Virus record (IMG/VR): IMGVR_UViG_3300002180_000647 | Coordinates: 1-22,518 of that record | From: a virus | DNA: 22,518 nucleotides | Direction: 5' to 3' (one strand) | Shown: in pieces, positions 5,758 through 20,238 of the stretch | Layout of the letters: each line of letters opens with the position of its first letter | Position numbering within the stretch: position 1 is the stretch's first letter | Made by a program: the position numbers and the translations under genes | The notes under the pieces: model-generated | Told to the model about the DNA's origin: nothing | What the model saw: only the letters and a program-made list of their open reading frames with translations | Database searches by the model: none

Positions 5758-5796
5758 CTAAATTTCCCAATTCACTGACCATAAGGAGACACTCAC

Positions 5797-6255
5797 ATGG
5801 CAGTCGTAGAAGTAAAATCAAACCTGAAGCCGGACTATCTGGACACGTCAGTTCGCCAGCCCGATCCGGTCGAGGTTGCCGCACGCAAGATCTTTGCAAA
5901 CGGCAATGTTGCAAATGGTGCCGCCGACAGTGCGCTTTCAACCTATCATCTGATGGATCTACCATCTGATTGCATTTTGGCTGAAGAAACCTTTTTCAAG
6001 GTGGATGCCTGGGGTTTTGCCCAGATCCAGATCGGCACAGAAACCGACCCAACGGCGCTGGTCAATCAGACCAAGGCAACCGAGGCGATCGTCACCCCGA
6101 TCGCCAACGGTGACACCAACCACGCCAAACGTCTTTGGGAAGTGCTGGGCATCGCGTCAGACCCTGGCGGCAATATCGGGATCTATGCCAGCGCTGCAGC
6201 TGGGGCAACCGGTGCCGGCACCATGACGTACCAGCTCGCCCACCTCTACCACTAA
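5797..6255 (+). CDS. Capsid cement/decoration protein candidate
   Basis: This 152-residue protein starts at ATG 5797 with AAGGAG at 5783-5788. It is strand-rich, with a hydrophilic N-terminal arm (KPDYLDTSVRQPDPVEVAARKIF), then a core ending in small residues (GIYASAAAGATGAGTMTYQLAHLY). BPP-1 has a jelly-roll cement protein encoded directly beside the capsid gene, and the length and order here fit that role: stabilising the shell after expansion. It is flanked on both sides by hairpins and has a strong ribosome-binding site, as expected for an abundant virion protein. I cannot align it residue by residue to a known cement protein, so the role rests mostly on position and size. Confidence 0.68.
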   Translation: MAVVEVKSNLKPDYLDTSVRQPDPVEVAARKIFANGNVANGAADSALSTYHLMDLPSDCILAEETFFKVDAWGFAQIQIGTETDPTALVNQTKATEAIVTPIANGDTNHAKRLWEVLGIASDPGGNIGIYASAAAGATGAGTMTYQLAHLYH

Positions 6256-6268
6256 CCCCAAGCATCTA

Positions 6269-6298
6269 CATCGAGGCTGGTTTGATCCGGCCTCGATG
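6269..6298 (+). terminator. Hairpin terminator after the cement-type gene
   Basis: A 12-bp stem (6269-6280 with 6287-6298, including one G-T pair) closes a TTTGAT loop. It is followed by CACCTTCGTTTT, giving a short T-run. The stem starts 14 bases after the cement stop. It probably lowers transcription into the tail genes, whose first member has no clear ribosome-binding site. It shares TGATCCGGCC with the hairpin after the capsid gene. Confidence 0.75.
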
Positions 6299-6324
6299 CA
6301 CCTTCGTTTTGGATAATTGAACCT

Positions 6325-6921
6325 ATGCCTGATCCAATCGCAGCTTCAAGTATTGTTGCCCAAGCCTGGCGGATGATGGAGCTATCGCCAATCAGCTCCT
6401 TTGCGGATGACAGCCCGCAAGCCGAGGCATCCCGCGAGCAGTACCCGATTGCCCTGGGGATGTGCCTAGAGGACCACGATTGGGCGTTTGCGCGCCGCCT
6501 TGCGCACCTGGCCCCAGCTGATCTGGCCGAGCATGAGATTGCCGATGATGAGCTGCCCTATCAGGCCATGATGCCAGGCGAGGCGGTGGCCTTGCGACTG
6601 GTTAAGCCGGCGACAGCGAATTACCGATTGGACGGGGATATGCTGCGCTTTGATCAGGGGGCTGGCGTTGACATCCGCTACACCCGATTGATCACCGGCG
6701 AGGCAAAATTGCCCGCGACATTTCAAACGGCCGTATCCGCCCAGCTGGCGGTTTTGCTGATGTCAAAATGGGTAAAAACCCGCACCAAAAAGGCCGACCT
6801 GACCACGGCGCTAGAAGATCTCATGGCAAAGGCCCGCAAGAACAATCGCGGGATGTCATCGGCCACGCGCCTTGATGGGCAGCCGCGCCAGGGTGACTGG
6901 GCCAGCGAGGCGACCCGATGA
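6325..6921 (+). CDS. Tail tubular protein A-like (gp11-type adaptor)
   Basis: This 198-residue protein has the plan of podovirus tail tubular protein A, the ring that joins portal to nozzle. An N-terminal helix (IVAQAWRMMELSPISSF) leads to a YPIALGMCLEDHDWAFARRLAHL block, matching the family's Y..aR..lL....W.fA.r...L. Then comes DELPYQAMMPGEAVALRLV (family P-x-D-x-L-R-V), the Y-x-x-x-G-x-x-L-x-x-D strand, and a C-terminal helical region. T7 gp11 is 196 residues. The start ATG 6325 has no good Shine-Dalgarno (only GGA at 6311-6313), in keeping with lower expression than the genes before it. The stop overlaps the next start as ATGA. Confidence 0.85.
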   Translation: MPDPIAASSIVAQAWRMMELSPISSFADDSPQAEASREQYPIALGMCLEDHDWAFARRLAHLAPADLAEHEIADDELPYQAMMPGEAVALRLVKPATANYRLDGDMLRFDQGAGVDIRYTRLITGEAKLPATFQTAVSAQLAVLLMSKWVKTRTKKADLTTALEDLMAKARKNNRGMSSATRLDGQPRQGDWASEATR

Positions 6922-9152
6922 CCCAATTTCGCCCGCCCCAGGTTGCTTTTTCCAGCGGTGAGGTTTCGCCGTTTTTGTATGCGCGCAATGATTACCAACG
7001 GTTTCAAACAGGTGTGCGCGCGATGCGGGGTTTTTTGCCGATGCGCGAGGGTGGTTTCACCCGCGCCCCGGGCACATTGTTTCGGGGCTACACCAAAGAT
7101 AATAACCGCGCGCGGTTTCTGGATTTTGAATTTGCAGTCAATGACGCGCTGACCTTGGAATTCACAGACGGAGTGATCCGCGTTTGGCGCTATGGCCAGC
7201 TGGTCGAGGTCACAGGGATGCCTGGCACGGTTTACGAGTTGGCCTCACCCTACACCGAAGCGCGGTTGGATCAGTTGCAATGGGAGCAATCGGCCGATGT
7301 TATTTATCTCGCCGATGGCGCTGGCCCGATCCAGAAACTATCGCGGTTTGCGCTTGATAACTGGACGATAGCACCGGCGCATTACAAATCCGGACCGTTT
7401 CGCATCCAAAATCTGGATGAGGCAATCACCATTCAGGCATCCGCCATGACGGGTGCGATCAATCTGGCAGGCGTTGGTGATCCATTTGAAGCCAGCCACG
7501 TTGGCGTGCAAATGCGCATGACGGCCGTCGATTACACCAACATCCCGCTTTGGTCGAGTAACACGGCGGTGGCGATCAATGATCAGATGCGCGTGGGTGT
7601 GAATGTTTATCAACTGGTTGCTGGAGCGAGTACGGGTGTCAGTGCGCCTGTCCACGTCGAGGGCACACAGCTGGTTGATAAAACCACCGGCGCAAAGTGG
7701 AAACACGTTTCTGACGGGTCGGGCATTGTCGAGATCACCGGATTTACCAATGCCAACTTGGTCGCAGCCACCGTGATTAAATCTGTGCCGCAGGCTTGCG
7801 TTGATGATCCAACTTATCGATTTGCCGAAAGCGCCTGGTCAGGTCGGCATGGGTATCCCAAAACCATATCAATTTATGATCAGAGCTTTTTCGCGGCCGC
7901 CAGCCCATCCAGCCCGCGCACAATCTGGGTGTCCACTCTGGGGGCCTTTGACAATTTTGAGCCAAGCACCGAGGCTGACGGATCCTTTGCCTATGGGATT
8001 GGCGGTACAAACAGCCAGAACGGCATCAATTGGCTGGCGAGGGGCCGAAAGGGGATCTATATCGGCGCGCTTGGCGAAGTGTTCAGGGGGTTTTCCACTG
8101 AAGTAAAGCAACGCATCGGGCCAACCACCTTTGACACCGAAACAGAATCAACGGATGGATCGACCGGCGCGCGCCCGATCGCACCTTACGGCTATCCAAT
8201 TTTCATAACCAAAGACGGCAATCGGGTTGCAGAACTGCGGTACTCCTTTGAGGAAGATGGCGGCACGCCTTTGGAGTTGTCGGCCCCTTCAGACCATATC
8301 GGCCCCGAAGGCGGCGGCTTTGCCGGAATAGTTTGGCAGTCATCACCACGCCGCTTGGCTTGGTTGCGGCGCGGCATCGGTGATCTGGCTGTGATGCTGT
8401 ATGATCCAAAAGAGGATGTGCTGGGCTGGGCTGTGTGCTCGCTGGCCGGCGGCGTTGTGGAAACTATGTCGGTGACATCTTCGCCAACCGGTGGAAACGA
8501 CATTCTGACCATGGTGGTGCGCCGCGAAATCGATGGTGCAACCGTGCGCATGGTCGAGGAGCAAGCCCTGATCTACGGCACGTTGATTGGTGTTCAACCG
8601 ATCCATGAGGCTGTGCATTTCTTTGCATCATCAGTTTTTGTAAATGATCCGGAAACCGATACGTTTTCGGTGCCGCATTTGGTTGGCCAAGATGTTTACG
8701 CCTGGACCGATCGCGGCGAGTTTGGCCCCCTCACGGTGCCAGCTGGTGGCGAGATCGTTCTGGGGGTTGATTGCGGGCACGCAGTCATCGGGCTTTTTGA
8801 CGAGACCCATCATTGCGAAACGCTGGATATTCAGGCGGTCGCCAAAGACGGTGATCCGCGCGGCCGGCCAGAACGCCTGCACGCGGGCGGTGGCTTGGTT
8901 TTGCATCGCACAGCGGCTGGAAGAGTTGCGGCAGTTGAACGTGATTTTGACGATGAACCCCGCATTGGGCACGCGTACGAATTGATCGATCTGCCGGTGG
9001 CGGCGGATCTGGTCAACTCGTTTTCCGGAACAACAGATCTATCCAACGTATCCGGTTTTGCCCAAGAAACCTCATTGCGGTTTACGCCACGCGGTGGTGC
9101 GCCAATGACGGTTTTGGCAATTATTCCACCAATCGAGGGGGCCAACGCTTAA
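6918..9152 (+). CDS. Tail tubular protein B-like (gp12-type nozzle)
   Basis: This 744-residue protein opens with the typical nozzle start: QVAFSSGEVSPFLYARNDYQRFQTG, then MRGFLPMREGGFTRAPGT. This pattern (F..GE.SP.l.gR.D...Y..g...l.NF.p...GG...RPGT) marks the podovirus gp12-type tail tubes. The next segment (FLDFEFAVNDALTLEFTDG) and the DVIYLADG block also follow the family. The central part holds an inserted strand-rich region (about residues 150-280), then FAESAWSGRHGYPKTISIYDQ, matching the conserved W....GyP..v.fy..Rl. T7 gp12 is 794 residues. Six copies make the tube below the adaptor and hold the fibres. Translation is coupled to the adaptor gene by a 4-base overlap. Confidence 0.9.
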   Translation: MTQFRPPQVAFSSGEVSPFLYARNDYQRFQTGVRAMRGFLPMREGGFTRAPGTLFRGYTKDNNRARFLDFEFAVNDALTLEFTDGVIRVWRYGQLVEVTGMPGTVYELASPYTEARLDQLQWEQSADVIYLADGAGPIQKLSRFALDNWTIAPAHYKSGPFRIQNLDEAITIQASAMTGAINLAGVGDPFEASHVGVQMRMTAVDYTNIPLWSSNTAVAINDQMRVGVNVYQLVAGASTGVSAPVHVEGTQLVDKTTGAKWKHVSDGSGIVEITGFTNANLVAATVIKSVPQACVDDPTYRFAESAWSGRHGYPKTISIYDQSFFAAASPSSPRTIWVSTLGAFDNFEPSTEADGSFAYGIGGTNSQNGINWLARGRKGIYIGALGEVFRGFSTEVKQRIGPTTFDTETESTDGSTGARPIAPYGYPIFITKDGNRVAELRYSFEEDGGTPLELSAPSDHIGPEGGGFAGIVWQSSPRRLAWLRRGIGDLAVMLYDPKEDVLGWAVCSLAGGVVETMSVTSSPTGGNDILTMVVRREIDGATVRMVEEQALIYGTLIGVQPIHEAVHFFASSVFVNDPETDTFSVPHLVGQDVYAWTDRGEFGPLTVPAGGEIVLGVDCGHAVIGLFDETHHCETLDIQAVAKDGDPRGRPERLHAGGGLVLHRTAAGRVAAVERDFDDEPRIGHAYELIDLPVAADLVNSFSGTTDLSNVSGFAQETSLRFTPRGGAPMTVLAIIPPIEGANA

Positions 9153-9670
9153 TGTGTGTATTAGGGCTATTACCGGCACTGGCTGGGGCAGGCGGTGCAA
9201 CTGCAGCCGGTGCAACTGCAGCAGCGGCAACGACCCTGCAAACAGTCGGCACGATCGTCGCGATCGGTGGTTCTCTGTATTCAGGCATTGCGGGGTACAA
9301 CGCCTCAAAAGAGCAGGCCGCGCAGATCGCGGCCCAAAAACAGACCGAAGCCGAGTTAACCGCGGTCAAAGACCAGCGCTCACGCCAACAGTTTCAGTCC
9401 GAGATCCGCAAACAGTTTGCCGAGATGGCTGGTCGTGGCGTGTCATTGGACAGCCCAACCGTTGTGTTGCTGGGCCAAGAAGCCGCGCGCGAAATGAGTT
9501 TTGAAAGCCAGGCCATTCGCCATGAGGGTATCGCCACACAAACAGAACTGACCCACCAACAGCGCATCACCAAAGCAAATGGCACTAAAAGACTAATCGG
9601 CGGTGTCACAGGGGGGGCCAGCTCATTTTTGAAACATGCCCCTAATGTTTGGCCGGAGTTGCTGGCATGA
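9152..9670 (+). CDS. Internal virion protein, gp14-like (ejection protein)
   Basis: This 172-residue protein starts at ATG 9152 in a TAATG junction. Residues 1-50 are hydrophobic and small (Ala, Gly, Thr, Val), with Cys at position 2, and end in GSLYSGIAGYNASKEQ. Then follow Gln/Ala/Glu-rich helices and the MAGRGVSLDSPTVVLLGQEAA segment, equivalent to the conserved GV.l.sGs...vl.d motif of small podovirus internal proteins. T7 gp14 (196 residues) enters the host outer membrane and forms the first part of the DNA ejection channel. It is followed by the two large ejection genes in the same order as T7 gp14, gp15, gp16. A short internal repeat (GGTGCAACTGCAG twice near 9195) lies in the hydrophobic part. 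Confidence 0.8.
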   Translation: MCVLGLLPALAGAGGATAAGATAAAATTLQTVGTIVAIGGSLYSGIAGYNASKEQAAQIAAQKQTEAELTAVKDQRSRQQFQSEIRKQFAEMAGRGVSLDSPTVVLLGQEAAREMSFESQAIRHEGIATQTELTHQQRITKANGTKRLIGGVTGGASSFLKHAPNVWPELLA

Positions 9671-11820
9671 GCTTAACGGTTCCCAAGGCTGGCTTAACTG
9701 CAGGTCGCGCCGCCCGCGCGGGTCATGCCGTGCCGAATGCTGGAGCCGAGTTTGCCCAGCTGGGTGACAATCTCGCCGCGGCCGCCACAGCGATTGAAAA
9801 CGATCGGTTATCTCGGGAGGCGCAGCGCCTTCAGGTAGATCTCACCAAAGACATGAACGATTTGCGTTTAGAGTTCGAGCAGATTGGCGATCCGGATCAA
9901 ATTGAGGAGCAATGGGGTCAGCGCATCGCTGCCCTGCGAAATGAGTATTTCACAGGCGCGAATGACGAAGGCCGGTTGCGGGTAGACCCGAAAAATCATG
10001 AACGGTTTGGCTTGGCCTTTGATGACCTTTCCCAGCGACACGGCTTTGCAATGGCACAGCGGGCAATGGCGGGGCGCTTTTCACAACGCGAAGCCACATG
10101 GGTGGAATACCAGCACGAAGCTATAAACGCCGGCGCGAATGCAGATCCGGAAACCCGGGATGGATTGCTGGCCAGTGGCGATGCGATGATTGACGAACTG
10201 GTGGCCAACAACGTGATTGATGCTGCCACAGCCGCCAAGCGCAAACTGGCCTTGCGTGGCGATATGAGCAACGCCAGCGCAATTTCGTTGGTTAATGCAG
10301 ATCCACAGGCATATCTGGAATTGGCTGATGCTGGCGAATTTGACGATCTGGGGGGCGAAGCCAAGGCCCGCTACGCAGTCCAGGCGCAAAATGCGCTGGA
10401 CCGGCAGGCCACAGCCGCCATGACAGCTGAAGAAAAGGCAACACGGGCGCGCGAAAAGGAAATCGATGGCCAGCTGGATGATATTATCGCAATTGCTGGC
10501 GAGGGCCGCACGTCCGTAGATGAGGCTTGGCTAAATTCCCCGGAGGTGCTGGGCCGACCAAAACACGCCGAGGCGATGGCCGCAATTTCACTGCGCGAGG
10601 AGCAGCCAGGCTTTGATCAAATGACCGTCGCTGATCTGGACGGGCTGATCACAACAGAGCGTGGCAAAAAGCTATCTGAACCATTTCAGGCCGAGCGTCT
10701 GAAGGTGCTGCAAGAAACCCGCGCAGCGCGCGCCGATGCCTGGCAAAAGGATGCAGTTGGAACTGGCCGTGCCCAGGGGATCCCCACACCAAACTTGCCG
10801 GAATATGATCCAAACAATCCGGCTGATTTTGCAGCCGGACTAGAAGCACGTCTGACCCACGCACAATGGATGGTCGAAAAAGGCTATACAGATCAGGTTC
10901 AGCTGTTTGATGCTGACGATCTTGAAGCCATAAAGCCTCATTTGGCGCTCGATGCCGATCCAAAAGATCGCGCCAACCTTGCAACGATCCTGACCAACAC
11001 GATGGGCGAGGATGCGCCTAAAATGGCAGCGCGGATGGGGGCGGATGCCGCGTTTGTGTATTCCACCAACCTGACAGCGCAAGGCGCGCCGGCCGCCACC
11101 GTTTCCGACATCATGGCCGGCAGCCAAAAACTGGCCGCCAAAACTGTGCAGATCCCGACGCACAATAAATTCGTCGCGGAATTCGGCAAGCAAACCGAAG
11201 GCATGTTTTTAGAGCAACCCGAACTTGCCCCGCAAATTCTGGCATCGGCCAAGGCATTGTATGCTCAATCGGGCGCATCCGATGATCCTGCAGAAATTGA
11301 CACAGAGGTTTTTGCCACGGCGCTACAGCGCGCACTAGGCGGCGAAGCGGACGCAAATGGTCAGCTGACCGTTGGCGGCCTGCAAACCTTTGATGTGCGC
11401 GGTACCTGGGGTGGATCCGGTGATGATTATGCCATCCCGTTGCCGGTAGGTGTGCCGGCCGCTGGTGTGAATGGTGCACTGGATCAGATCGAGGCGGATT
11501 TAAGCAAACGCTGGGTGCGCGACCACGCCGGCACAACTGGCCCAGACACTGGCAGCTATTCCAGCCCAAGCATGGACCGGCTTGCGGCCGCATCGATCAC
11601 AGGGGCCGCGCCAAATTTTGGAGATCCGGAGGCTGACGATTTTGATCCGGCTGAAACATTTTCCAACATGCGCCTTGGTGCATATTGGCAGGGTGGCAAA
11701 CCATCCGACACCTACGTGTTTTATGCCGAACGTGGCGGCCGCAAGGTGTTTTTATATGACACCGAAGGTAAGGTGTTCCGGATCAGCTTAAAGCAGCTTT
11801 TGCAGGGGGCGTCGCAATGA
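9667..11820 (+). CDS. Internal virion protein, gp15-like (ejection protein)
   Basis: This 717-residue protein starts at ATG 9667 (ATGA overlap), with GGAG at 9654-9657; an upstream TTG at 9649 is not needed. It is largely helical, acidic and Ala-rich, with coiled-coil-like stretches at residues 25-75 and 220-260 and no enzyme motif. The segment QRHGFAMAQRAMAGRFSQREATW, and repeated RARE/ARAD helices, are like podovirus core proteins that line the inside of the portal and form the periplasmic tube during ejection. T7 gp15 is 747 residues. The C-terminal 90 residues are different: compact, aromatic, ending GAYWQGGKPSDTYVFYAERGG. This could be a small strand-rich domain. Function follows from size, order and composition. 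Confidence 0.72.
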   Translation: MSLTVPKAGLTAGRAARAGHAVPNAGAEFAQLGDNLAAAATAIENDRLSREAQRLQVDLTKDMNDLRLEFEQIGDPDQIEEQWGQRIAALRNEYFTGANDEGRLRVDPKNHERFGLAFDDLSQRHGFAMAQRAMAGRFSQREATWVEYQHEAINAGANADPETRDGLLASGDAMIDELVANNVIDAATAAKRKLALRGDMSNASAISLVNADPQAYLELADAGEFDDLGGEAKARYAVQAQNALDRQATAAMTAEEKATRAREKEIDGQLDDIIAIAGEGRTSVDEAWLNSPEVLGRPKHAEAMAAISLREEQPGFDQMTVADLDGLITTERGKKLSEPFQAERLKVLQETRAARADAWQKDAVGTGRAQGIPTPNLPEYDPNNPADFAAGLEARLTHAQWMVEKGYTDQVQLFDADDLEAIKPHLALDADPKDRANLATILTNTMGEDAPKMAARMGADAAFVYSTNLTAQGAPAATVSDIMAGSQKLAAKTVQIPTHNKFVAEFGKQTEGMFLEQPELAPQILASAKALYAQSGASDDPAEIDTEVFATALQRALGGEADANGQLTVGGLQTFDVRGTWGGSGDDYAIPLPVGVPAAGVNGALDQIEADLSKRWVRDHAGTTGPDTGSYSSPSMDRLAAASITGAAPNFGDPEADDFDPAETFSNMRLGAYWQGGKPSDTYVFYAERGGRKVFLYDTEGKVFRISLKQLLQGASQ

Positions 11821-14800
11821 CCATTTTGCCAGAGCTTCCAGAAGAACAAGACGTAGATGTGACAGCCATCACCGCGCGCCCGCCTGCAGCTGATCGGTTT
11901 TCGGCAGCATGGCAAAGTGAGACCGTGCGCACAGATGCATGGTGGTATACAGCGCGCCAGCGTGCAGACGTGAACCAAGAAGTTTACCTGCGGCTATCAC
12001 CCGAGGCCAAAGAGCGTGTTTTTGACGGCTATGGCGATGTTTGGCGGCAACCTGACGTGCAGGATCAAAGCGCTGAAATGGAAAAGATCCTGTTGCGCGA
12101 GGCCGCCAATGACGAAAATGGCGGGCCACGTTGGCATGGGATCCCGACCACCGAGGAAGAAATCAACACTGAGGTATTGCGTCGACGTCAAGACGCCCTG
12201 ACCGAGGCCGAGGCGGTACTGGCCATCGATGGCGGCGGTGCGGCTGGATTAGCGGGCACTTTTTTGCGCGCTGCAACCGATCAAAGCAGCGTGGCGATGG
12301 CCCCGCTGGGGTTGCAAGGCAGCCTGGCGCGTGTGATCGCTGGCGAGTTTGCGCTGGGAGTGGCGGGCGAGGCGGCCATTTTACCCCGCGAATTTGCAGT
12401 TGCTGACGAGCTGGGGTTGGAGGAACCGAAAATTCTGCCACGCCTGGCAATGGGTGCTTTGGCTGGTGGCGCATTTGGTGGGTTGATCGCAGGCGCGCCT
12501 CGCGCCTATCGATATTTGACGACAAAGCGGGAAGCCACCACCGCCGCCCGACAGACCGGCACCGATCCGGTCGATCATGAATTGTCGGTCGATGAAGAAT
12601 ATGCGCGCATGACGGATACCGAAGCGCCCGCCGCCGAGCTTGAGCGCCAGCATGCGCAAGAGCCAAAGACCGGCCCGTTGAAATTCAGTGATTTTGATTT
12701 CACGCCCGCCGGCAATGCCAGCCCCAGAAATAACCGCATAGGCTATGTTTTCGGCAAATTGTTGGAGCTTGGTTATGAGCCACACACAGCGGCCGGCTTG
12801 ACTGGCAACTTTATGCAGGAAAGCGGTGTGTCGCTCAATACGCGCGCTGTTGGGGATGGTGGCAATGCTTATGGCATGGGGCAATGGAACGGCCCGCGCC
12901 GGCGTACCTATCTGGCCTTTGCTAAAGCCCAGGGCACCAATCCGGAAAACATTGATACGCAAATTGCGTTTTTCCATCACGAAATGCAAACGAGCGAGCG
13001 CACGGCCGCCCAGAAGATACTGGCAGCACCCGACGCCAAATCAGCCGCGTTGATCGCTTCACAGGCTTTCTGGCGCCCTGGTGCGCCCCACAACGCAAAC
13101 AGAATGAACTATGCCGGTCTGATATTTCGTCAATATCAGGATGGAGCAGTGCCCAAATGGCAGGGGCCGATGTCTTCAGCTCAAAATTCTGCAAATGACT
13201 ACACCGGATATTCCACCAGTCGCGGCTACACCACCACGGGCACGGTCACAGCCGGCGACAGCACCCGCATCGATGTTAAATATGAAGTTGTGGACGCCTC
13301 TTTGCTGCAGCGCGCCAGCGGTGATTTGCAGCCGCGCGACAGATCCCGCGCCGCCAGCGATGAGCAAATTGCTGAAATTGCGGCACGTTTGGATCCAGCC
13401 CGTTTGATGCCATCGCCAGAAGCTGATCGAGGCGCGCCAATTGTTGGGCCCGACAGCGTGGTTGAAAGCGGCAACGGGCGCTATCTGGCCATCGAGCGGG
13501 CCGCACAACAGCACCCCGATCGGTTTGCAGCTTACCGCAAGGCAATTGTTGATGCCGGTTATGAAATTCCGGATGGCGTTGAAACGCCCGTTTTGATTGC
13601 GCGCCGCACATCCGATCTGGATCCGGACGCCCGCCGCCAGTTCATTCGCAACGCCAACACATCGGCCGTGGCGCGGATGTCAGCGACCGAGCGCGCCGCG
13701 TCAGATGCGGCCTCGATCGACAATGACACCGTTGGCTTGTTTGTCCCAGGCGAGGCGTTGAGCGCCAAAGCCAACAAGCCATTTGTGACCCGCACCCTGG
13801 CCGCGATGCCACAAGCGGAACGCAACGCCCTGGTTGATGCCAAGGGCGCTTTGAACGCTGAAGGCATTGCGCGGATCAAACAGGCGCTGTTTGCCCGCGC
13901 CTATGATGCCCCAGACATTTTGGCCAGGTACGCCGAAACCGAGGCCGGAGATCTGCGCGCCTTGGTCGATGCGCTGGAAGAGGCGGCACCAGCATGGGCT
14001 GCGATGCGCGCTGATGTTGCGGCTGGCTTGATCCGCCCCGAGCTGGACATCACCGAGTTTATGCTGGACGCCATGCGCCTGATTGCCACCGCCCGCCAAA
14101 TCGCCCGCAGGGACGGCACAGCCGCCGCCCAGGTGATCAAAGAGCTGTTGAGCGACATCGACCTGCTAGAGGGTGCCCTGCACCCCCTGACAGCGGCGCT
14201 GGTGCGCAAATTTACCCCCAACGGCAAGGCAGCTCCGAAAGACAAGATTGCTAGATTCCTGACCCGTTACGCAGACGAGGCACGCAAAATAGGTAGCACA
14301 GAGGGCGGCCTATTTGGTGATAGCCCTGGGCCGGTTCAAGTTCTACGTGCGCTTGATAAAGAAACCTTTAGCGGTCTGCCAGATGAAATGCCGGCTGCTC
14401 CTGTTCGGCATGATGAAATCGCGCCGGCAATGGATCTGGAAGCGATGCCGGATCGCGCCTATGCCGAGGGTGCCAATTCACCTGAAGCAAAGATGGCGAC
14501 GGATCTTGCGGACGCCCAATTGCGCAGCGATGTCGAGGCGGGCAACCAGCTGGTGCGCCGGCTGAACCAACAAGCCTTGGCCGATCTGACCGAGTTCAAA
14601 AAAGGTCAGCCGGCAAATACTGTTGATGAGATTTATCAGCATGCGGATATTTCGCACAAAGAGTTAACAGGAGTGGCACTGCCTCTAGCGCGCGACCTTG
14701 GCGTTGATTTTGTAGATCCTGGCTTGAAGGTTCGAAAAACAGTCGACGAGAAAATGGTGCGCAAGCAATACCAAACGGCCCATCAAATCACAGATGTTGT

Positions 14801-15539
14801 TCGCGGCGCGTTTTTAATCCGCAAGGCAAGTGATGCCGATGCGGTGATTGATGGTCTGATTGCGAAATTTGATTTGATCGATGAAGGTTGGAAGCTGACC
14901 GAGGCGGGATATACTGACCGTAAGCTGCTAATTCGCACCAAAAACGGCATTTTGGCTGAAGTCCAAATCCTGCCAGAGAAGCTATATCGTTCCAAAAAAG
15001 AGGGCGGTCAGGCGTTATACACAAAACGCCGTGTGGCAAAGAATGAAGTTGAGCGCACAGCGATACTCGAAATGGAAGCCAAGCTTTATTCGGCTGCCAT
15101 GGATGCGTCTGACGCCTCGTTTGGCAATTTGGAAATGTCCAAAGGCCCAAAATTACTTTCAAACAGCGCGCGCCAATCGTCCTCGGATAGCACGGCCGCG
15201 GTTTCGGTAACATCGGCCTCGTCAACTGCGACCCAATCACCGTCAGGTTCTAGTATTGCAAACGCTCGGTTAAAGCCGAGTGATACCGCTGGTCGATCAT
15301 CCCATGAAGAAAATACCATAAATAACACTCCTTTCACTCAAAACATAAGCACGCCAGGCGAAGATGTCCAGACTGCCCTGCGCAATGAGCTGAACGAGTT
15401 TCGCGCCAACAGCGGTGATCTGGAGTTTGAGCAACCCGATGGCAGCACCTTCAGCACACGCGAGATACTCGACGATCTGGACAGCGATGCGGATCTGGAT
15501 GCGTTGATCGATATTTGCAACATGAAAGGATCTGCATAA
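11817..15539 (+). CDS. Multidomain ejection protein: lysozyme, ParB-like nuclease and RelA/SpoT-like domains
   Basis: This 1240-residue protein starts at ATG 11817 in an ATGA overlap. Residues 1-300 are helical with a Gly/Ala-rich, possibly membrane-active stretch near 140-230. Residues 305-440 match phage tail lysozyme: GNFMQESG with catalytic Glu335, then GNAYGMGQWNG and a closing AFWRPGAPH. Residues 520-635 match the DdrB-type ParB-like domain found in phage polyvalent proteins: VESGNGRYLAIERA (GNGR at 552-555) and RNANTSAVARMSATERAASDA. A helical region follows to about 860. Residues 940-1095 resemble the RelA/SpoT nucleotidyltransferase core: VRKTVDEKMVRK (Arg973), TDVVRG (Asp993), GYTDRK (Tyr1032), LAEVQIL (Glu1048). 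Residues 1110-1165 are a Ser/Thr-rich linker overlapped by a minus-strand gene, then a short acidic end. It takes the gp16-like role of opening the cell wall. Confidence 0.85.
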   Translation: MTILPELPEEQDVDVTAITARPPAADRFSAAWQSETVRTDAWWYTARQRADVNQEVYLRLSPEAKERVFDGYGDVWRQPDVQDQSAEMEKILLREAANDENGGPRWHGIPTTEEEINTEVLRRRQDALTEAEAVLAIDGGGAAGLAGTFLRAATDQSSVAMAPLGLQGSLARVIAGEFALGVAGEAAILPREFAVADELGLEEPKILPRLAMGALAGGAFGGLIAGAPRAYRYLTTKREATTAARQTGTDPVDHELSVDEEYARMTDTEAPAAELERQHAQEPKTGPLKFSDFDFTPAGNASPRNNRIGYVFGKLLELGYEPHTAAGLTGNFMQESGVSLNTRAVGDGGNAYGMGQWNGPRRRTYLAFAKAQGTNPENIDTQIAFFHHEMQTSERTAAQKILAAPDAKSAALIASQAFWRPGAPHNANRMNYAGLIFRQYQDGAVPKWQGPMSSAQNSANDYTGYSTSRGYTTTGTVTAGDSTRIDVKYEVVDASLLQRASGDLQPRDRSRAASDEQIAEIAARLDPARLMPSPEADRGAPIVGPDSVVESGNGRYLAIERAAQQHPDRFAAYRKAIVDAGYEIPDGVETPVLIARRTSDLDPDARRQFIRNANTSAVARMSATERAASDAASIDNDTVGLFVPGEALSAKANKPFVTRTLAAMPQAERNALVDAKGALNAEGIARIKQALFARAYDAPDILARYAETEAGDLRALVDALEEAAPAWAAMRADVAAGLIRPELDITEFMLDAMRLIATARQIARRDGTAAAQVIKELLSDIDLLEGALHPLTAALVRKFTPNGKAAPKDKIARFLTRYADEARKIGSTEGGLFGDSPGPVQVLRALDKETFSGLPDEMPAAPVRHDEIAPAMDLEAMPDRAYAEGANSPEAKMATDLADAQLRSDVEAGNQLVRRLNQQALADLTEFKKGQPANTVDEIYQHADISHKELTGVALPLARDLGVDFVDPGLKVRKTVDEKMVRKQYQTAHQITDVVRGAFLIRKASDADAVIDGLIAKFDLIDEGWKLTEAGYTDRKLLIRTKNGILAEVQILPEKLYRSKKEGGQALYTKRRVAKNEVERTAILEMEAKLYSAAMDASDASFGNLEMSKGPKLLSNSARQSSSDSTAAVSVTSASSTATQSPSGSSIANARLKPSDTAGRSSHEENTINNTPFTQNISTPGEDVQTALRNELNEFRANSGDLEFEQPDGSTFSTREILDDLDSDADLDALIDICNMKGSA
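15086..15319 (-). CDS. Small acidic protein encoded antisense inside the ejection gene; possible immunity factor
   Basis: This 77-residue frame starts at ATG (plus positions 15319-15317), with AAAGGAG eight bases upstream (plus 15334-15328), and ends with TAA at 15088-15086. A GTG at 15337 is a longer alternative but would start at the ribosome-binding site itself. The protein looks real: it has three Trp, about 17 Asp/Glu against 4 Arg/Lys, and folded-looking segments (GFNRAFAILEPDGDWVAVDE, then LSEDDWRALFESNFGPL). Other antisense frames in this window are Ser/Arg/Pro-rich shadows. Here it is the plus-strand product that is Ser/Thr-rich and looks like the shadow. It lies directly after the RelA/SpoT-like domain. 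Strong acidity and position would suit an antitoxin or immunity protein, but that is inference; no family is recognised. Confidence 0.58.
   Translation of the reverse strand: MVFSSWDDRPAVSLGFNRAFAILEPDGDWVAVDEADVTETAAVLSEDDWRALFESNFGPLDISKLPNEASDASMAAE
15342..15370 (-). promoter_or_regulatory. Candidate sigma70-type promoter for the antisense gene
   Basis: On the minus strand TGGACA (plus 15370-15365; five of six match TTGACA) and TATGTT (plus 15347-15342; four of six match TATAAT) are separated by exactly 17 bases. Transcription would start near 15335, about 16 bases before the ATG at 15319 and next to its AAAGGAG. The spacing is ideal but such matches occur by chance, so this counts mainly because it is aligned with the ribosome-binding site and frame. 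Confidence 0.42.
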
Positions 15540-18031
15540 TGGCCAATTTGCATGACTGCCTACAGCGCGCAATGGATGCAGGTGAGCTGGATAAAACACG
15601 CGGGGCAGAGGCCCAATCAGAATTCAGCCAATTGGTGGAACAGTACTCACAGGCGATGCCAATTCACCAGGCTGAAGCGACCGCAGCGGCCCATTTGAAG
15701 GAGGTAACTTCAAGGGCCGCTCGGTCGCGCAGACACACGGTTTTGAACCAGCTGCAGACAATGGTGCGCATCAAGCATTTGATTGTCACAGCCAAAGATC
15801 CAGCAGTGGCAGTGCGCAACCTTTTGGAGCATTCCCCGGGATCAGGCTTCAAAGGTGAAAGCATCGAGAAATTGGCCGATGCAATAATCGTGTCGGTTGA
15901 TGGTGGCATCAATGATTTCCTGCGCGAGGCTGGCCTTAAAATGACGGGCAGTAGCCGCAACAAAGCGTTGATGACAGACGTGATGCGCGAGCTGCATTTG
16001 CAAGAGACCGGCAACCCGCGTGCGGTTGAGCTGGCCGATGCTGTGCGCAAGCAGCAAACCCGCTTGCGTCAGATGTTCAATGCCCACGGCGGCGACATTG
16101 GTGTTTTGGCCGACTTTGGTGCCAGCCACAGCCATGACGCCATGCGGATCCGCAAGCTGGGTGTTCGCAGCTGGTCGGAAAATGTTGGCCCAAAGCTGGA
16201 TTGGTCGCGGATCGAGAACAAGCGAACAGGCCAACCGTTTGTTGCCACCAAAGGCGAGCGGCCGGATCCGGCCACAGAAGCAGAATTTTTGAAGATTGTT
16301 TATGACGGCATCACCACCAAAGGCTGGAATGTCCGCGAGCCATCAATGACGATGGGCGGCAAGGCGCTATACAATCAGCGCGCCGAACATCGCGTTTTGC
16401 ATTTTCTGGATGCAGACAATTGGTTGTCCTACAATAAGGAATTCGGCACATCCGATCCATTTTCGGCCCTGATCGGCGGCTTGCACGGTATGGCGCGCGA
16501 TATTGCGATGATGCGCGTTCTGGGGCCAAATCCAAAAATGGGGCTGGAATATGCCGCACAAGTTGCCAAAAAACATGCGGTCACCATTGGCGATACCAAG
16601 CTAGAGCGCCGTGTCGGCAAGAAAGCGGCTATGGCCAAAACCATGCTGGCACATTTTGACGGATCGGTGAACCATACCGAATGGGCCGCAAGGTCAGCCT
16701 TCTTTTCTGGCACCAGCAAGGTTTTAACATCGATCCAGCTGGGATCGGCAGCCCTGTCAGCGGTCACGGATATGGCCACAATCTCGGTGGCCAGCCGCGC
16801 GGTTGGTATGAATGCCAGCAATGTGCTGTCGCGCCACGTTCAATTGATGGCCAGCAGCGCCACCCGCGAAACCGCAGCCCGCATGGGCTATGTGGCCGAA
16901 ACGCTGGCCGATGCGGGGGCCACGGCCGCCCGCTGGACCGGCGATACCATTGCCCCGCAACTGGCCGAGCGGCTATCTGGCTTCACAATGCGCGCCTCTG
17001 GCCTGTCTTACTGGACGGATATGGCAAAAACGGCGTTCCGGATGGAATTTTCCGGATTGCTGGCTGACAACACCGGCCGCGCTTTTGACCAGATCGATGA
17101 GCCTTTGCGCGAGATCCTGACAGCGCGCGGCATCACATCTGCCGATTGGGAGCATTTGCGCGATCCACAAGCCTTGTTCCGGACTGACGGCGGTGCAACC
17201 TTCCTGTCACCCATCCATTGGTTGAACAGAACACCAATGCCAAAGGCCGAAGCCGAGGGCTTGGCACTGCGCCTGCAGATGATCATCGAGGAAGAGCTGG
17301 AACTGGCGGTGCCCACGGCGAGCCTGGAAGCGAAGGCGTGGGCATTGCGTGGCTCTGACCCTGGTTCCCCTCTTGGCATCCTTGGTAGATCAGCCTTCAA
17401 ATACAAAGCCTTCACCGGCACATTAATGCTGAACCAAATTAGGCGTTTCAATGCTATTCCTGCGCCGCAAAACAAATTCAAATATGCCGCATCCATTTCT
17501 GCAGGTCTGTTGTTGCTGGGGGGCGTTGCTGTTCAGCTGAAGGAAGTCAGCAAAGGCCGCGATCCGCGTCCGATGGATGAGAAAAAATTCTGGCTGGCTG
17601 CATTCATGCAAGGCGGCGGTGCAGGCATTTTCGGCGACTTCTTTGCCGCAGAAACCAGCCGATCCGGCGGCGGTCTTGCAGAAACGATCGCAGGTCCAAT
17701 TGTTGGCGCAGCAAGCGACGTTATTAAGCCGATTGCCTCAAACCTAAAACGCGGATTTGAAGGCAAAGAAACCCTGCTTGGCCGTGATCTGGCAAACTTC
17801 ACCCGTCGCAACACACCGGTCGCGTCCAGCCTTTGGTATACGCGGCTGGCTTTCGATCGGATGGTTTCAGATCAGCTGCAAAGTTTTCTGGATCCCGAGG
17901 CCGAAGTGCAGTTTCGCCGGCAAGAACGTCGCCGGCAGCGCGACTATGGCACAGCGACCTATTGGCCACGCGGCGATTTCACACCCGAACGCACCCCCGA
18001 CCTGACAAACGCACTTGGAGGCAACCGATGA
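15539..18031 (+). CDS. Large internal virion protein with membrane segment (gp16-type C-terminal half)
   Basis: This 830-residue protein starts at ATG 15539 (TAATG junction) with GAAAGGA at 15524-15530; the longer frame from 15515 has no better site. It is mainly helical. The block YNKEFGTSDPFSALIGGLHG followed by MARDIAMMRVLGPNP (from residue 298) is a signature of large podovirus ejection proteins, and FFSGTSKVLTSIQLGSAALSAV follows. One clear membrane-like helix (ASISAGLLLLGGVAVQL, about 649-668) and a Gly-rich hydrophobic stretch near 685-740 follow, then a basic tail (RRQERRRQRDYG) ending in a YWPRGDF motif. In T7 one protein, gp16, carries both the lysozyme and the channel part. Here the enzymes sit in the previous gene and this protein probably forms the inner-membrane part of the channel. 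Confidence 0.78.
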   Translation: MANLHDCLQRAMDAGELDKTRGAEAQSEFSQLVEQYSQAMPIHQAEATAAAHLKEVTSRAARSRRHTVLNQLQTMVRIKHLIVTAKDPAVAVRNLLEHSPGSGFKGESIEKLADAIIVSVDGGINDFLREAGLKMTGSSRNKALMTDVMRELHLQETGNPRAVELADAVRKQQTRLRQMFNAHGGDIGVLADFGASHSHDAMRIRKLGVRSWSENVGPKLDWSRIENKRTGQPFVATKGERPDPATEAEFLKIVYDGITTKGWNVREPSMTMGGKALYNQRAEHRVLHFLDADNWLSYNKEFGTSDPFSALIGGLHGMARDIAMMRVLGPNPKMGLEYAAQVAKKHAVTIGDTKLERRVGKKAAMAKTMLAHFDGSVNHTEWAARSAFFSGTSKVLTSIQLGSAALSAVTDMATISVASRAVGMNASNVLSRHVQLMASSATRETAARMGYVAETLADAGATAARWTGDTIAPQLAERLSGFTMRASGLSYWTDMAKTAFRMEFSGLLADNTGRAFDQIDEPLREILTARGITSADWEHLRDPQALFRTDGGATFLSPIHWLNRTPMPKAEAEGLALRLQMIIEEELELAVPTASLEAKAWALRGSDPGSPLGILGRSAFKYKAFTGTLMLNQIRRFNAIPAPQNKFKYAASISAGLLLLGGVAVQLKEVSKGRDPRPMDEKKFWLAAFMQGGGAGIFGDFFAAETSRSGGGLAETIAGPIVGAASDVIKPIASNLKRGFEGKETLLGRDLANFTRRNTPVASSLWYTRLAFDRMVSDQLQSFLDPEAEVQFRRQERRRQRDYGTATYWPRGDFTPERTPDLTNALGGNR

Positions 18032-20238
18032 CCACAGAGACATTTACTCCAGCCCCCAAATATACCATCGATGGCATCGGTCCTTACCATGTGCCGCACG
18101 CCTATTCAGCTGCGACCGACATTCTGGCCGTTGTCAACATCGATGGTGCACTGGTCGACGTGCCGGTCGCTGACATTTCTTTGGTGCCGCTAACATCGGA
18201 AATCAAGGGCGATGTTTGGCTGGATGCTACATATGCGGCAACCAATGACGGGTTGGATCTGTATATCACGCGTCAAACCTTTTTGGAGCAGGGCTGGGTT
18301 GGCGTTGGCGGATCTCGTGAGAAGGGGCTTGAGTACCAGATGGACCGCCTGACACGTCGCATTCAGGACGCGGCCCAGGGTGCTGACACATCTTTGCGCG
18401 TCCTCAAATCGTCGGCAAAAGCCTATGTGCCAAACGATCAATCTGTGCCGATTTGGGATGAGGCATATGGTGGATTTCTAAATGGCCCGAACGCAAGTGA
18501 CATTGCGGCCGCTCAAGCCTACGCCGCCCAAGCCGCAGCAAGCGCTACCATCGCATCAACATACGCCAACCAGCCTTTTACAAGCCGCGCCGCTCTTATC
18601 GCTGCAACCGTTGAGGCAGAGGTCAAAATCGTTGCGTTCTTTAGCTCAAATGGCCACCTTCTTTACTGTGTCGATGGCGCTGTGAACGTGTGCGCAACGT
18701 CCAACGCTGGCACGCGAAATTGGGTGCCAAGCGGCAGGGCAACCCCAGACCATTACCAAGAGAACACGACGCCCAAGATCACGGATATGATAACAGGCTT
18801 CACTGGAATGATTGCCTGGATGAACACCAACGCCACCAAGGGGCGGCTTCTTCCTGGCGCTTATTTGTGCGACGCTACTATTCCAGAATTAACCACCCCT
18901 GGTATTGGTATACATGGTGAGGGCCAAGGCAACAGCGCAAACTTGGTCCCGTCTGTAGACGCACCAACGATGGTGATCCTAACAGGAACGGGGCGCGGCT
19001 TTCTGCTCACAAATGACGATCAGGAGTTGATCGGGTTTCGCCTGACCTCTGACGCTGCACGGTATGCGCTGGCGTTTGATATTGATCAACCAGGTGTTCG
19101 GGTGGAGCCAGCAGATACCGCCACTGGCCGCGCTGATCGCTGCAAGATCGACCTTCGGATTGACAAGCAACCTGGTGATGGCGTTCTATCGGTGGGTCTC
19201 ACGCCGTATTTGGACACCTCAAATTGTGACATCTACGAGTGTAAAGGCAACGGTAGACGCTCAGACCCAGGCATCCACCCTGACCTGACGCGCACCAACA
19301 CCTTCTATATCTTTGAGCATATCGGCGACAATATGCGGATCGGCTTTTGCGGTGGGCACGCGATAGCAATATCCCACCCTGACGCAGACCAGCAGGCAGA
19401 AATTGGTATTCGGTGCATCTTTGAGGGCATGGATAGCTTTGGGAACGGGATTGATACGTCCATTATGTATCCCACATTCAATGGCATCTACCACGATGTT
19501 TGGATTTTTGGCGAGCAATGCGAAGTGAACAACAGCGCCCCATCCGGCCTCCAAGGGTACGGTCTGACGAAAGAGGTTTTGGGGGGCATTCACATCCAAG
19601 GACGTGATAATAAACTCCTAAACAATCGTTATATCGAGACCGCACAGCCTATCAGTTGGGAGCATTTAACCGCACAACCCAACTCTGGATTGATTGTAAA
19701 CGAGGGTCGGTTGGTCAACACGACGCTGACCCACGACGAGCTTATTGACATCGAAGACCTGACATCAACGGGCCTGAACGTGACTTGGGCGCGGATGGAG
19801 TTCTTGACTGCGATATGTGACGCGGGGCTGGCAGACGCGATAATCAACCGGCCTGACGTGTTCGAAGTCCGCAAAACCCTAATGCTAGATGGCAACGCTG
19901 TTGGCGGTGTAGAGGTGACAATTGCGGACGACGCCGTTGCCAGCATCACGCCGCCTAGGACAGCAGGTCGGGCGATTATCAACAATATCAGGACGGTTGC
20001 GAGCATTGACTACCCAGCGAAGGTTCACAGCGGCGAGTTTTGGTATGATGTCGGTGGTTCTTTAGACGCTGTTGATACCACCCCCGCAGGTCTTGGTGCC
20101 AACTTGGATGTCGGAACAACCACACTGACCGGCACCACGGGAACGGATACCAACACAACGGTCTCCGCCCAAACGGGCGTTATCCAGATTGAGAACCGCA
20201 CAGGGAACGAATGCGAATATCAGGTGACGTTCCTATGA
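18028..20238 (+). CDS. Tail fibre/tailspike with T7-type N-terminal anchor
   Basis: This 736-residue protein starts at ATG 18028 (ATGA overlap); the open frame continues upstream in another gene's sequence but that part is not used. Residues 1-120 resemble the T7 gp17 N-terminal domain that fixes fibres to the nozzle: YTIDGIGPYHVPHAY, then DLYITRQTFLEQGWVGVGGS and LEYQMDRLTRRIQDAAQG. An Ala-rich helix follows (about 158-183). Residues about 240-560 are strand- and Gly/Asn/Asp-rich (GIGIHGEG, GGHAIAISHP, GGIHIQGRDNKLLNN), as in a right-handed beta-helix. The last 100 residues are Thr/Gly-rich and probably trimerise or bind. It recognises the host surface; a beta-helix often means polysaccharide binding or cleavage. 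Codon choice in the distal part differs by eye from the head genes, as common in exchanged fibre tips. Confidence 0.85.
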   Translation: MTTETFTPAPKYTIDGIGPYHVPHAYSAATDILAVVNIDGALVDVPVADISLVPLTSEIKGDVWLDATYAATNDGLDLYITRQTFLEQGWVGVGGSREKGLEYQMDRLTRRIQDAAQGADTSLRVLKSSAKAYVPNDQSVPIWDEAYGGFLNGPNASDIAAAQAYAAQAAASATIASTYANQPFTSRAALIAATVEAEVKIVAFFSSNGHLLYCVDGAVNVCATSNAGTRNWVPSGRATPDHYQENTTPKITDMITGFTGMIAWMNTNATKGRLLPGAYLCDATIPELTTPGIGIHGEGQGNSANLVPSVDAPTMVILTGTGRGFLLTNDDQELIGFRLTSDAARYALAFDIDQPGVRVEPADTATGRADRCKIDLRIDKQPGDGVLSVGLTPYLDTSNCDIYECKGNGRRSDPGIHPDLTRTNTFYIFEHIGDNMRIGFCGGHAIAISHPDADQQAEIGIRCIFEGMDSFGNGIDTSIMYPTFNGIYHDVWIFGEQCEVNNSAPSGLQGYGLTKEVLGGIHIQGRDNKLLNNRYIETAQPISWEHLTAQPNSGLIVNEGRLVNTTLTHDELIDIEDLTSTGLNVTWARMEFLTAICDAGLADAIINRPDVFEVRKTLMLDGNAVGGVEVTIADDAVASITPPRTAGRAIINNIRTVASIDYPAKVHSGEFWYDVGGSLDAVDTTPAGLGANLDVGTTTLTGTTGTDTNTTVSAQTGVIQIENRTGNECEYQVTFL

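What the first reader, a model, noticed from the sequence alone, without database searches (positions are those of the whole stretch)
11817..15539. RelA/SpoT-like nucleotidyltransferase domain carried by an ejected virion protein
Residues 940-1095 reproduce the order and spacing of the alarmone synthetase core: a basic K/R-x-x-S/T-x-x-x-K-x-x-R-K helix (Arg973), the D-x-x-x-R strand (Asp993), the G-Y motif (Tyr1032) and E-V-Q-I (Glu1048). These correspond to the ATP-binding Arg, metal-binding Asp, GTP-stacking Tyr and catalytic Glu of RelA/SpoT enzymes. Ejection proteins enter the host with the DNA, so an active domain would act at the first moment of infection, by making (p)ppGpp or a related nucleotide or by modifying tRNA as toxSAS enzymes do. 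A delivered enzyme of this type would be a notable phage effector.
Basis: partly seen in the sequence, partly recalled or inferred. Interest (0 to 1): 0.82.

Follow-up and report, generated by a model that had tools for sequence, protein, structure and literature searches.

The report
Phage-delivered toxin hiding its own antidote
A protein that this bacterial virus probably injects into its host carries an enzyme domain related to bacterial alarm-signal toxins, and a small gene that is probably its antidote is written on the opposite DNA strand inside the toxin gene, an arrangement conserved in dozens of related viruses.

Summary
Residues ~928-1104 of the 1240-aa protein form a RelA/SpoT-type pyrophosphokinase domain. 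Pfam PF04607 misses it, but a three-sequence phage profile hits Tas1 at E=1.3e-9. AlphaFold gives a confident model (pLDDT >90 over most of the domain) that aligns best to Tas1 (Z 14.2) and small alarmone synthetases. Catalytic positions are invariant in about 40 phage homologues; the conserved basic residue is K971, not R973. The domain is an optional cassette at the C-terminus of the third of three ejection-type proteins; sister phages lack it or carry a PBECR1 nuclease there.

The larger finding was missed. The apparently disordered stretch after the domain is an antisense gene: minus strand 15319-15086, 77 aa, with a Shine-Dalgarno site and an upstream promoter-like site. The protein family is new to Pfam, PHROGs and the PDB. 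It is nested antisense in 35 distinct homologues, codon-position variation shows selection on the antisense frame, and every locus found with its profile also encodes the RelA domain. Where the toxin protein ends at the domain, the same gene lies outside it, downstream or convergent.

Best reading: a toxSAS-type effector delivered by a podovirus, with its immunity gene nested antisense inside it. The gene and domain are well supported; immunity, enzyme product and ejection are inferred.

The parts
11817..15539 (+). 1240-aa ejection-type (polyvalent) virion protein carrying the RelA/SpoT-like domain
   Evidence: ORF and translation; orthologues in 18 phages between the 723-aa and 838-aa protein genes
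12741..13130 (+). Phage_lysozyme2 domain (aa 309-438)
   Evidence: PF18013, E 3.3e-27
13257..13607 (+). DdrB-like ParB domain (aa 481-597)
   Evidence: PF18763, E 2.2e-35
14598..15128 (+). RelA/SpoT (Tas1-like) pyrophosphokinase domain (aa ~928-1104); K971, K979, R982, K983, D993, R996, Y1032, D1034-R1035-K1036, E1048, Q1050
   Evidence: Profile hits to Tas1 E 1.3e-9; AF2 model and VIA Z 14.2; invariant residues
15129..15374 (+). Stretch of the + strand protein with very low predicted order (aa ~1105-1186), largely overlapping the antisense gene
   Evidence: pLDDT <50 over most of it; conservation explained by the antisense frame
15086..15319 (-). Nested antisense gene: ATG at 15319, stop TAA at 15088-15086, 77 aa (MVFSSWDDRPAV...); candidate immunity protein
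15328..15334 (-). Shine-Dalgarno-like AAAGGAG, 8 nt before the antisense ATG
   Evidence: GGAGG/AGGAG/GAGGT in 22/29 homologues vs 1% of control ATGs
15342..15370 (-). Sigma-70-like promoter TGGACA-17-TATGTT upstream of the antisense gene
   Evidence: in homologues TTGA[CT] starts exactly 48 nt before the ATG in 12 of 29
15375..15536 (+). Conserved C-terminal tail (aa 1187-1240) shared with phages that lack the RelA cassette
   Evidence: Alignments
9152..9670 (+). 172-aa internal virion protein
   Evidence: phrog_418, E 3.4e-15
9649..11820 (+). 723-aa second ejection-type protein
   Evidence: Position and orthologues
15515..18031 (+). 838-aa virion structural protein directly downstream; neighbour of the cassette protein in nearly all homologous loci
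   Evidence: phrog_684, E 3.7e-154

Best explanation
The C-terminal domain is an active-type RelA/SpoT (SYNTH) pyrophosphokinase of the Tas1/Apk and exported-alarmone-synthetase branch, carried as a swappable effector cassette on a podoviral ejection protein. It probably moves the beta,gamma-pyrophosphate of ATP onto the 3' hydroxyl of an acceptor (nucleotide or tRNA end) once the protein is inside the host, slowing or killing the cell. The antisense gene at 15319-15086 encodes its immunity protein, made from its own promoter independently of the late structural operon. It would protect the cell that makes virions, cells carrying the prophage, or an infected cell once the incoming genome is expressed. 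Shown by computation: the fold, conserved catalytic residues, the cassette nature, the antisense gene and its exclusive association with the domain. Inferred: enzyme activity and product, ejection, and neutralisation by the antisense protein.
For: Domain. Cassette: sister phages lack it at the same site or carry PBECR1 there; in nearly all homologous contigs the domain is in the protein next to the 838-aa protein gene. Antisense gene: open in 31/31 linkers; 35/35 distinct loci start with ATG and 32/35 have an SD-like site, against 8% of control ATGs; a -35 element at a fixed distance. Codon-position pattern is reversed relative to normal + strand coding (antisense pos1/pos2 ratio 1.34, CI 1.10-1.67), and antisense mismatches are more conservative (mean BLOSUM -0.33 vs -0.84). 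Toxin link: 41 loci found with the antisense profile alone all contain the RelA domain; no hit in RelA-less neighbour loci. The same family occurs as ordinary separate genes: L086 5134-5400 (+), L110 and L118 as repeated copies downstream, and convergent in L080, L083 and L134. Whenever the toxin protein ends 15-23 aa after the domain the gene is outside it; whenever it extends at least 112 aa the gene is nested.
Against: No experiment. The antisense protein has no structure prediction here and no hit to any known immunity family, Tis1 included. Openness of the frame alone is weak evidence: synonymous shuffles of the forward protein leave it open in 44% of cases on average. The acceptor motif GYxDRK differs from characterised (p)ppApp and (p)ppGpp synthetases, so the product is unknown. 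The phages are related, so counts are not independent.
Confidence: 0.7

Rival explanations
1. The antisense product matters as an RNA: a type I-like antisense transcript that lowers translation of the ejection protein, with no protein role.
For: It has a promoter-like site and is transcribed against the toxin coding sequence if active.
Against: A protein family is conserved with third-position variation and conservative substitutions in the antisense frame, ATG and SD are conserved, and the same protein occurs as a separate gene that is not antisense to the toxin in L086, L110 and L118.
Confidence: 0.08
2. The antisense protein is real but is not an immunity protein: for example an activator, chaperone for packaging the domain, or regulator.
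For: No known immunity homologue; PBECR1 cassettes at the same slot show no obvious nested gene.
Against: Exclusive pairing with the toxin domain and gene arrays downstream of C-terminal toxin domains are the usual layout of toxin-immunity modules (MuF toxins, PMC5576092).
Confidence: 0.17
3. The domain is a catalytically dead relic or a structural module of the ejection protein.
For: It is dispensable: many sister phages lack it.
Against: Metal, ATP-phosphate and catalytic positions are invariant in about 40 divergent copies, and a linked small gene is kept.
Confidence: 0.06
4. The antisense reading frame is an artefact of codon bias opposite a low-complexity linker.
For: Synonymous shuffles leave the frame open in 44% of cases.
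Against: Homologues outside any overlap (L086, L110, L118), SD and -35 signals far above controls, reversed codon-position constraint.
Confidence: 0.03

Closest known systems
Tas1/Apk1, type VI effector (p)ppApp synthetase (PDB 6ox6)
   Same: Best sequence and structure match (E 1.3e-9; Z 14.2); D-x-x-R and E-x-Q motifs; toxin with immunity protein
   Different: Delivered by T6SS; acceptor motif GYxGxN rather than GYxDRK; immunity protein Tis1 not detectably related to the antisense family
Apk2, MuF polymorphic toxins of temperate phages (PMC12226406, PMC5576092)
   Same: Phage-encoded C-terminal synthetase domain thought to be delivered with the virion; small immunity gene next to the toxin gene; L080 and L083 appear to be MuF-type carriers of this very domain family
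   Different: MuF head protein, not ejection protein; immunity genes iapK and aph1 follow the toxin gene, not nested antisense
Phage-type polyvalent proteins with RelA/SpoT and DdrB-ParB domains (Iyer et al. 2017, PMC5512222)
   Same: Multidomain injected proteins with lysozyme, DdrB-ParB and effector domains; RelA/SpoT and PBECR domains named
   Different: RelA/SpoT reported from Spirochaete and epsilonproteobacterial (pro)phages and MuF fusions; no immunity or antisense gene mentioned in the passages read (the words overlap and antisense do not occur)
Exported alarmone synthetases (SaEAS, VpEAS; PMC12691689)
   Same: Same SYNTH branch (8vx3, Z 13.8); Photobacterium relatives share GYxDxK
   Different: Sec-exported single-domain enzymes without immunity genes; that survey of export domains does not list ejection proteins

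Membership tests
RelA/SpoT (SYNTH) pyrophosphokinase fold | SYNTH fold by structure | tested here: met
   AF2 pLDDT >90 over most of the domain; Foldseek E 1.4e-7 and VIA Z 14.2 to Tas1, 13-14 to SASs
RelA/SpoT (SYNTH) pyrophosphokinase fold | Conserved catalytic set (K, K, D-x-x-R, Y, E-x-Q) | tested here: met
   Invariant or nearly so in about 40 homologues
RelA/SpoT (SYNTH) pyrophosphokinase fold | Passes Pfam PF04607 threshold | tested here: not met
   No hit; the domain is a divergent branch outside the model's reach
Tas1/Apk (p)ppApp synthetases | Sequence relatedness to Tas1 | tested here: met
   E 1.3e-9 and 2.7e-9
Tas1/Apk (p)ppApp synthetases | GxN signature at the acceptor site (syn3) | tested here: not met
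   D-R-K instead (signature from PMC12226406)
Tas1/Apk (p)ppApp synthetases | Makes (p)ppApp | not testable with these tools
   Needs an enzyme assay
Phage-type polyvalent proteins | Several effector-type domains in one late-gene virion protein | tested here: met
   Lysozyme, DdrB-ParB and RelA domains in the virion gene block
Phage-type polyvalent proteins | Delivered into the host with DNA | not testable with these tools
   Inferred from gene order
Polymorphic toxin with immunity | Variable C-terminal toxin domain on a conserved carrier | tested here: met
   RelA, PBECR1 or nothing at the same site
Polymorphic toxin with immunity | Linked small gene found only with the toxin domain | tested here: met
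   All 41 loci found with the small-protein profile contain RelA; none in RelA-less neighbours
Polymorphic toxin with immunity | Linked protein neutralises the toxin | not testable with these tools
   Needs co-expression
MuF toxins | MuF domain in the carrier | tested here: not met
   No MuF domain in the 1240-aa protein by Pfam

The most novel reading that the evidence does not exclude
A protein immunity gene with its own promoter lies wholly inside its toxin's gene on the opposite strand, conserved across dozens of podoviruses. The overlap is kept because the toxin cassette sits in the middle of an ejection protein whose C-terminal tail must still be translated through the immunity gene.
Probability: 0.7. 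Interest if true: 0.87.

Novelty: new variant of a known kind. Interest (0 to 1): 0.78.

Why it matters
It shows a virion-delivered alarmone-synthetase-type effector in podoviruses and gives it a testable partner. It is a strong case of antisense-overlapping protein genes: the overlap is conserved, has promoter and ribosome-site signals, and has non-overlapping relatives that prove the frame. The antisense family matches no Pfam or PHROG model, so ordinary annotation would miss the antidote. If the pair works as proposed, it bears directly on why phages carry toxins in their virions: protection of lysogens or producing cells, or making survival depend on expression of the incoming genome.

Tried and rejected
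Full-length and single-sequence scans of viral contigs found no relatives; relatives came by way of the neighbour gene and then profiles. Chance resemblance of the motifs: rejected by profile and fold evidence. The conserved S/T/P-rich stretch after the domain as a protease site or flexible linker: rejected once the antisense frame was translated. Autoinhibition by the linker or tail: AF2 leaves the linker below pLDDT 50, and the tail reaches only 50-60. A (p)ppGpp/(p)ppApp hydrolase (PF13328) as the immunity: none in 14 related contigs. A nested gene opposite PBECR1 in L011 and L013: no shared antisense reading seen by eye. Known relatives of the antisense protein: none above threshold in Pfam, PHROGs or PADLOC, none meaningful in the PDB, and none in annotated phages or plasmids with the two queries tried. 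Open-frame statistics alone: judged insufficient, so codon-position and non-overlapping-homologue tests were used instead.
Full report
WHAT THE WINDOW IS. The window is a 22.5-kb IMG/VR phage contig. Gene order is portal (PF12236), a capsid-assembly-like protein, major capsid protein, tail tube A and B, a 172-aa internal virion protein, a 723-aa protein, the 1240-aa protein of the finding, an 838-aa structural protein, a tail-spike-like protein, holin and endolysin. This resembles the internal-protein block of T7-like podoviruses, with the peptidoglycan hydrolase in the third protein. Ejection is an inference from this order.

THE OBSERVATION. The ORF is as stated. It carries Phage_lysozyme2 (aa 309-438) and DdrB-ParB (aa 481-597) domains. 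Pfam PF04607 does not detect the C-terminal domain. Neighbour-gene searching recovered 18 orthologous proteins including the window's; three of them (window, L008, L017) carry the domain, 37-44% identical over about 200 aa. A profile from these three hits Tas1 at 1.3e-9 and then small alarmone synthetases. A second scan found 48 viral contigs with it. Over about 40 distinct phage sequences the catalytic positions are invariant. Residue numbers: K971, K979, R982, K983, D993, R996, Y1032, D1034-R1035-K1036, E1048, Q1050. R973 is not conserved. Using the published Apk1 active site (R330, E382, E-x-Q; PMC12691689) and the printed alignment, R996 matches R330, E1048 matches E382 and K1036 lies at N370.

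STRUCTURE. AlphaFold with six related sequences gives pLDDT above 90 over most of the domain. Foldseek and VIA-align rank Tas1 first (E 1.4e-7; Z 14.2 over 162 residues), then exported SAS 8vx3 (13.8) and SAS1/SAS2/RelP (about 13.5), with CapRel at 11.2; unrelated polymerase-beta folds fall to about 7 and below. I could not measure distances in the model, so 'one pocket' rests on alignment with solved enzymes.

CASSETTE. Most sister phages lack the domain at this site (L005 joins aa 944 to 1188), while L011 and L013 carry a PBECR1 nuclease there (full Pfam score only in L011). The peptidoglycan-hydrolase slot also varies (VanY plus lysozyme in L010). In a far more distant phage, L041, the domain is 41% identical although the tail protein is only 28% identical, which suggests exchange of the cassette. 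The domain protein lies next to the 838-aa gene in nearly all contigs where both were held. Three of 296 genomes drawn from the family of the Salipiger genome carry the domain.

THE ANTISENSE GENE. The stretch after the domain is predicted disordered, yet conserved between divergent phages. Translating all frames showed one antisense frame open in 31 of 31 distinct sequences, reading a protein-like conserved sequence (W-D-x-R-P-A ... W-x-x-V-D-x-x-D-V). In the window it runs from ATG at 15319 to TAA at 15086, 77 aa, preceded by AAAGGAG and by TGGACA-17-TATGTT. All 35 distinct homologues start with ATG, and 32 have an SD-like site. Strong 5-mer SD sites precede 22 of 29, against 1% of control ATGs. 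TTGA[CT] begins exactly 48 nt before the ATG in 12 of 29, against 1.7% per 12-nt control window. These loci are related, so the figures are descriptive.

IS IT REALLY CODING? An open frame alone is not convincing: with the forward protein fixed, synonymous shuffles keep the frame open 44% of the time on average. Two better tests agree. First, antisense codon positions 1 and 2 correspond to forward positions 2 and 1. In the overlap the pattern fits antisense coding (ratio 1.34, 95% CI 1.10-1.67), and mismatches are more conservative in the antisense frame than in the forward frame. Second, the same protein exists where nothing overlaps: L086 5134-5400 on the + strand after a RelA protein that ends at its domain, with repeated copies in L110 and L118. 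In L080, L083 and L134 it is convergent with the toxin gene's end, and hhalign links the L080 version to the family at E 5.9e-9. L084/L085 (and the same contigs refetched as L111/L113) carry a nested copy plus two further copies. A weaker candidate lies nested in the chromosomal copy L094.

LINK TO THE TOXIN DOMAIN. A scan of viral contigs with the antisense family alone returned 41 loci; every one contains the RelA domain within reach. No antisense match occurs in the sister-phage loci lacking the domain. In the 296 genomes, the antisense family occurs in two, both among the three with the domain. Position follows a simple rule: proteins that end 15-23 aa after the domain have the gene outside, and proteins that continue at least 112 aa have it nested. 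The likely reason is that the ejection protein needs its conserved C-terminal tail (aa 1187-1240, shared with cassette-free phages), so translation must pass through the antisense gene. That is an inference.

MECHANISM. The domain should transfer pyrophosphate from ATP to a 3' hydroxyl. The acceptor is unknown: the syn3 motif is GYxDRK, not GxN (Apk) or SxH (RSH) (for the signatures). Photobacterium relatives that look like exported synthetases share GYxDxK, and the Vibrio enzyme VpEAS makes (p)ppGpp (PMC12691689), but I did not test that these are orthologous. The antisense protein is most simply an immunity protein made from its own promoter, outside late-operon control. It could protect lysogens, virion-producing cells or the newly infected cell; the data do not separate these.

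COMPARISON AND NOVELTY. RelA/SpoT domains in phage polyvalent proteins are known (PMC5512222), and MuF-Apk2 toxins with downstream immunity are characterised (PMC12226406; PMC5576092). A 2025 survey of exported synthetases lists five export-linked domains, none of them an ejection protein (PMC12691689). My literature searches found no immunity gene nested antisense in its toxin gene, but the library is incomplete. I therefore rate it a new variant of a known kind, with a genetic layout that may itself be new.

Noticed in passing
L011:6741-10001 and L013:6575-9982: A PBECR1-type nuclease domain sits at the same C-terminal slot of the orthologous ejection protein in place of the RelA domain (full Pfam score only in L011).
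   Followed up: partly
L110 6001-6730; L118 6001-6459: Repeated copies of the putative immunity gene lie downstream of a RelA protein that ends at its domain, like an immunity array.
   Followed up: partly
L084:9820-11418 (minus); same contigs as L111/L113: Two further copies of the antisense-family domain in one reading frame, besides the nested copy.
   Followed up: no
L083:6360-8540 and L080:6146-7087: Head-protein (MuF-like) carriers of the same RelA domain family with a convergent small gene; links this family to MuF toxins.
   Followed up: partly
L002:4750-5538 and 5758-6582 (Photobacterium sp. DA100, NZ_CP119424.1): Two adjacent genes for RelA-like proteins with signal-peptide-like N-termini, not listed in the PLSDB gene table; probably exported alarmone synthetases.
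   Followed up: no
L094:3-2750: A copy in a chromosomal contig of one of the sampled genomes, in an unusual reading frame, still with an antisense ORF preceded by TTGACG-17-TATATC and GGAGGT.
   Followed up: partly
window 17833-20238: Tail-spike-like protein conserved only in about its first 230 residues among relatives; the rest varies, as expected for receptor binding.
   Followed up: no
window 12741-13130 and orthologues: The peptidoglycan-hydrolase slot of the ejection protein is also swapped between phages (Phage_lysozyme2; VanY plus lysozyme in L010; other sequence without a Pfam hit in L008 and L011).
   Followed up: no
L037:1594-4926 and L038:6621-9953: A very divergent RelA-like match (E about 5e-5) in the corresponding protein of a distant phage group; no antisense-family hit.
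   Followed up: no
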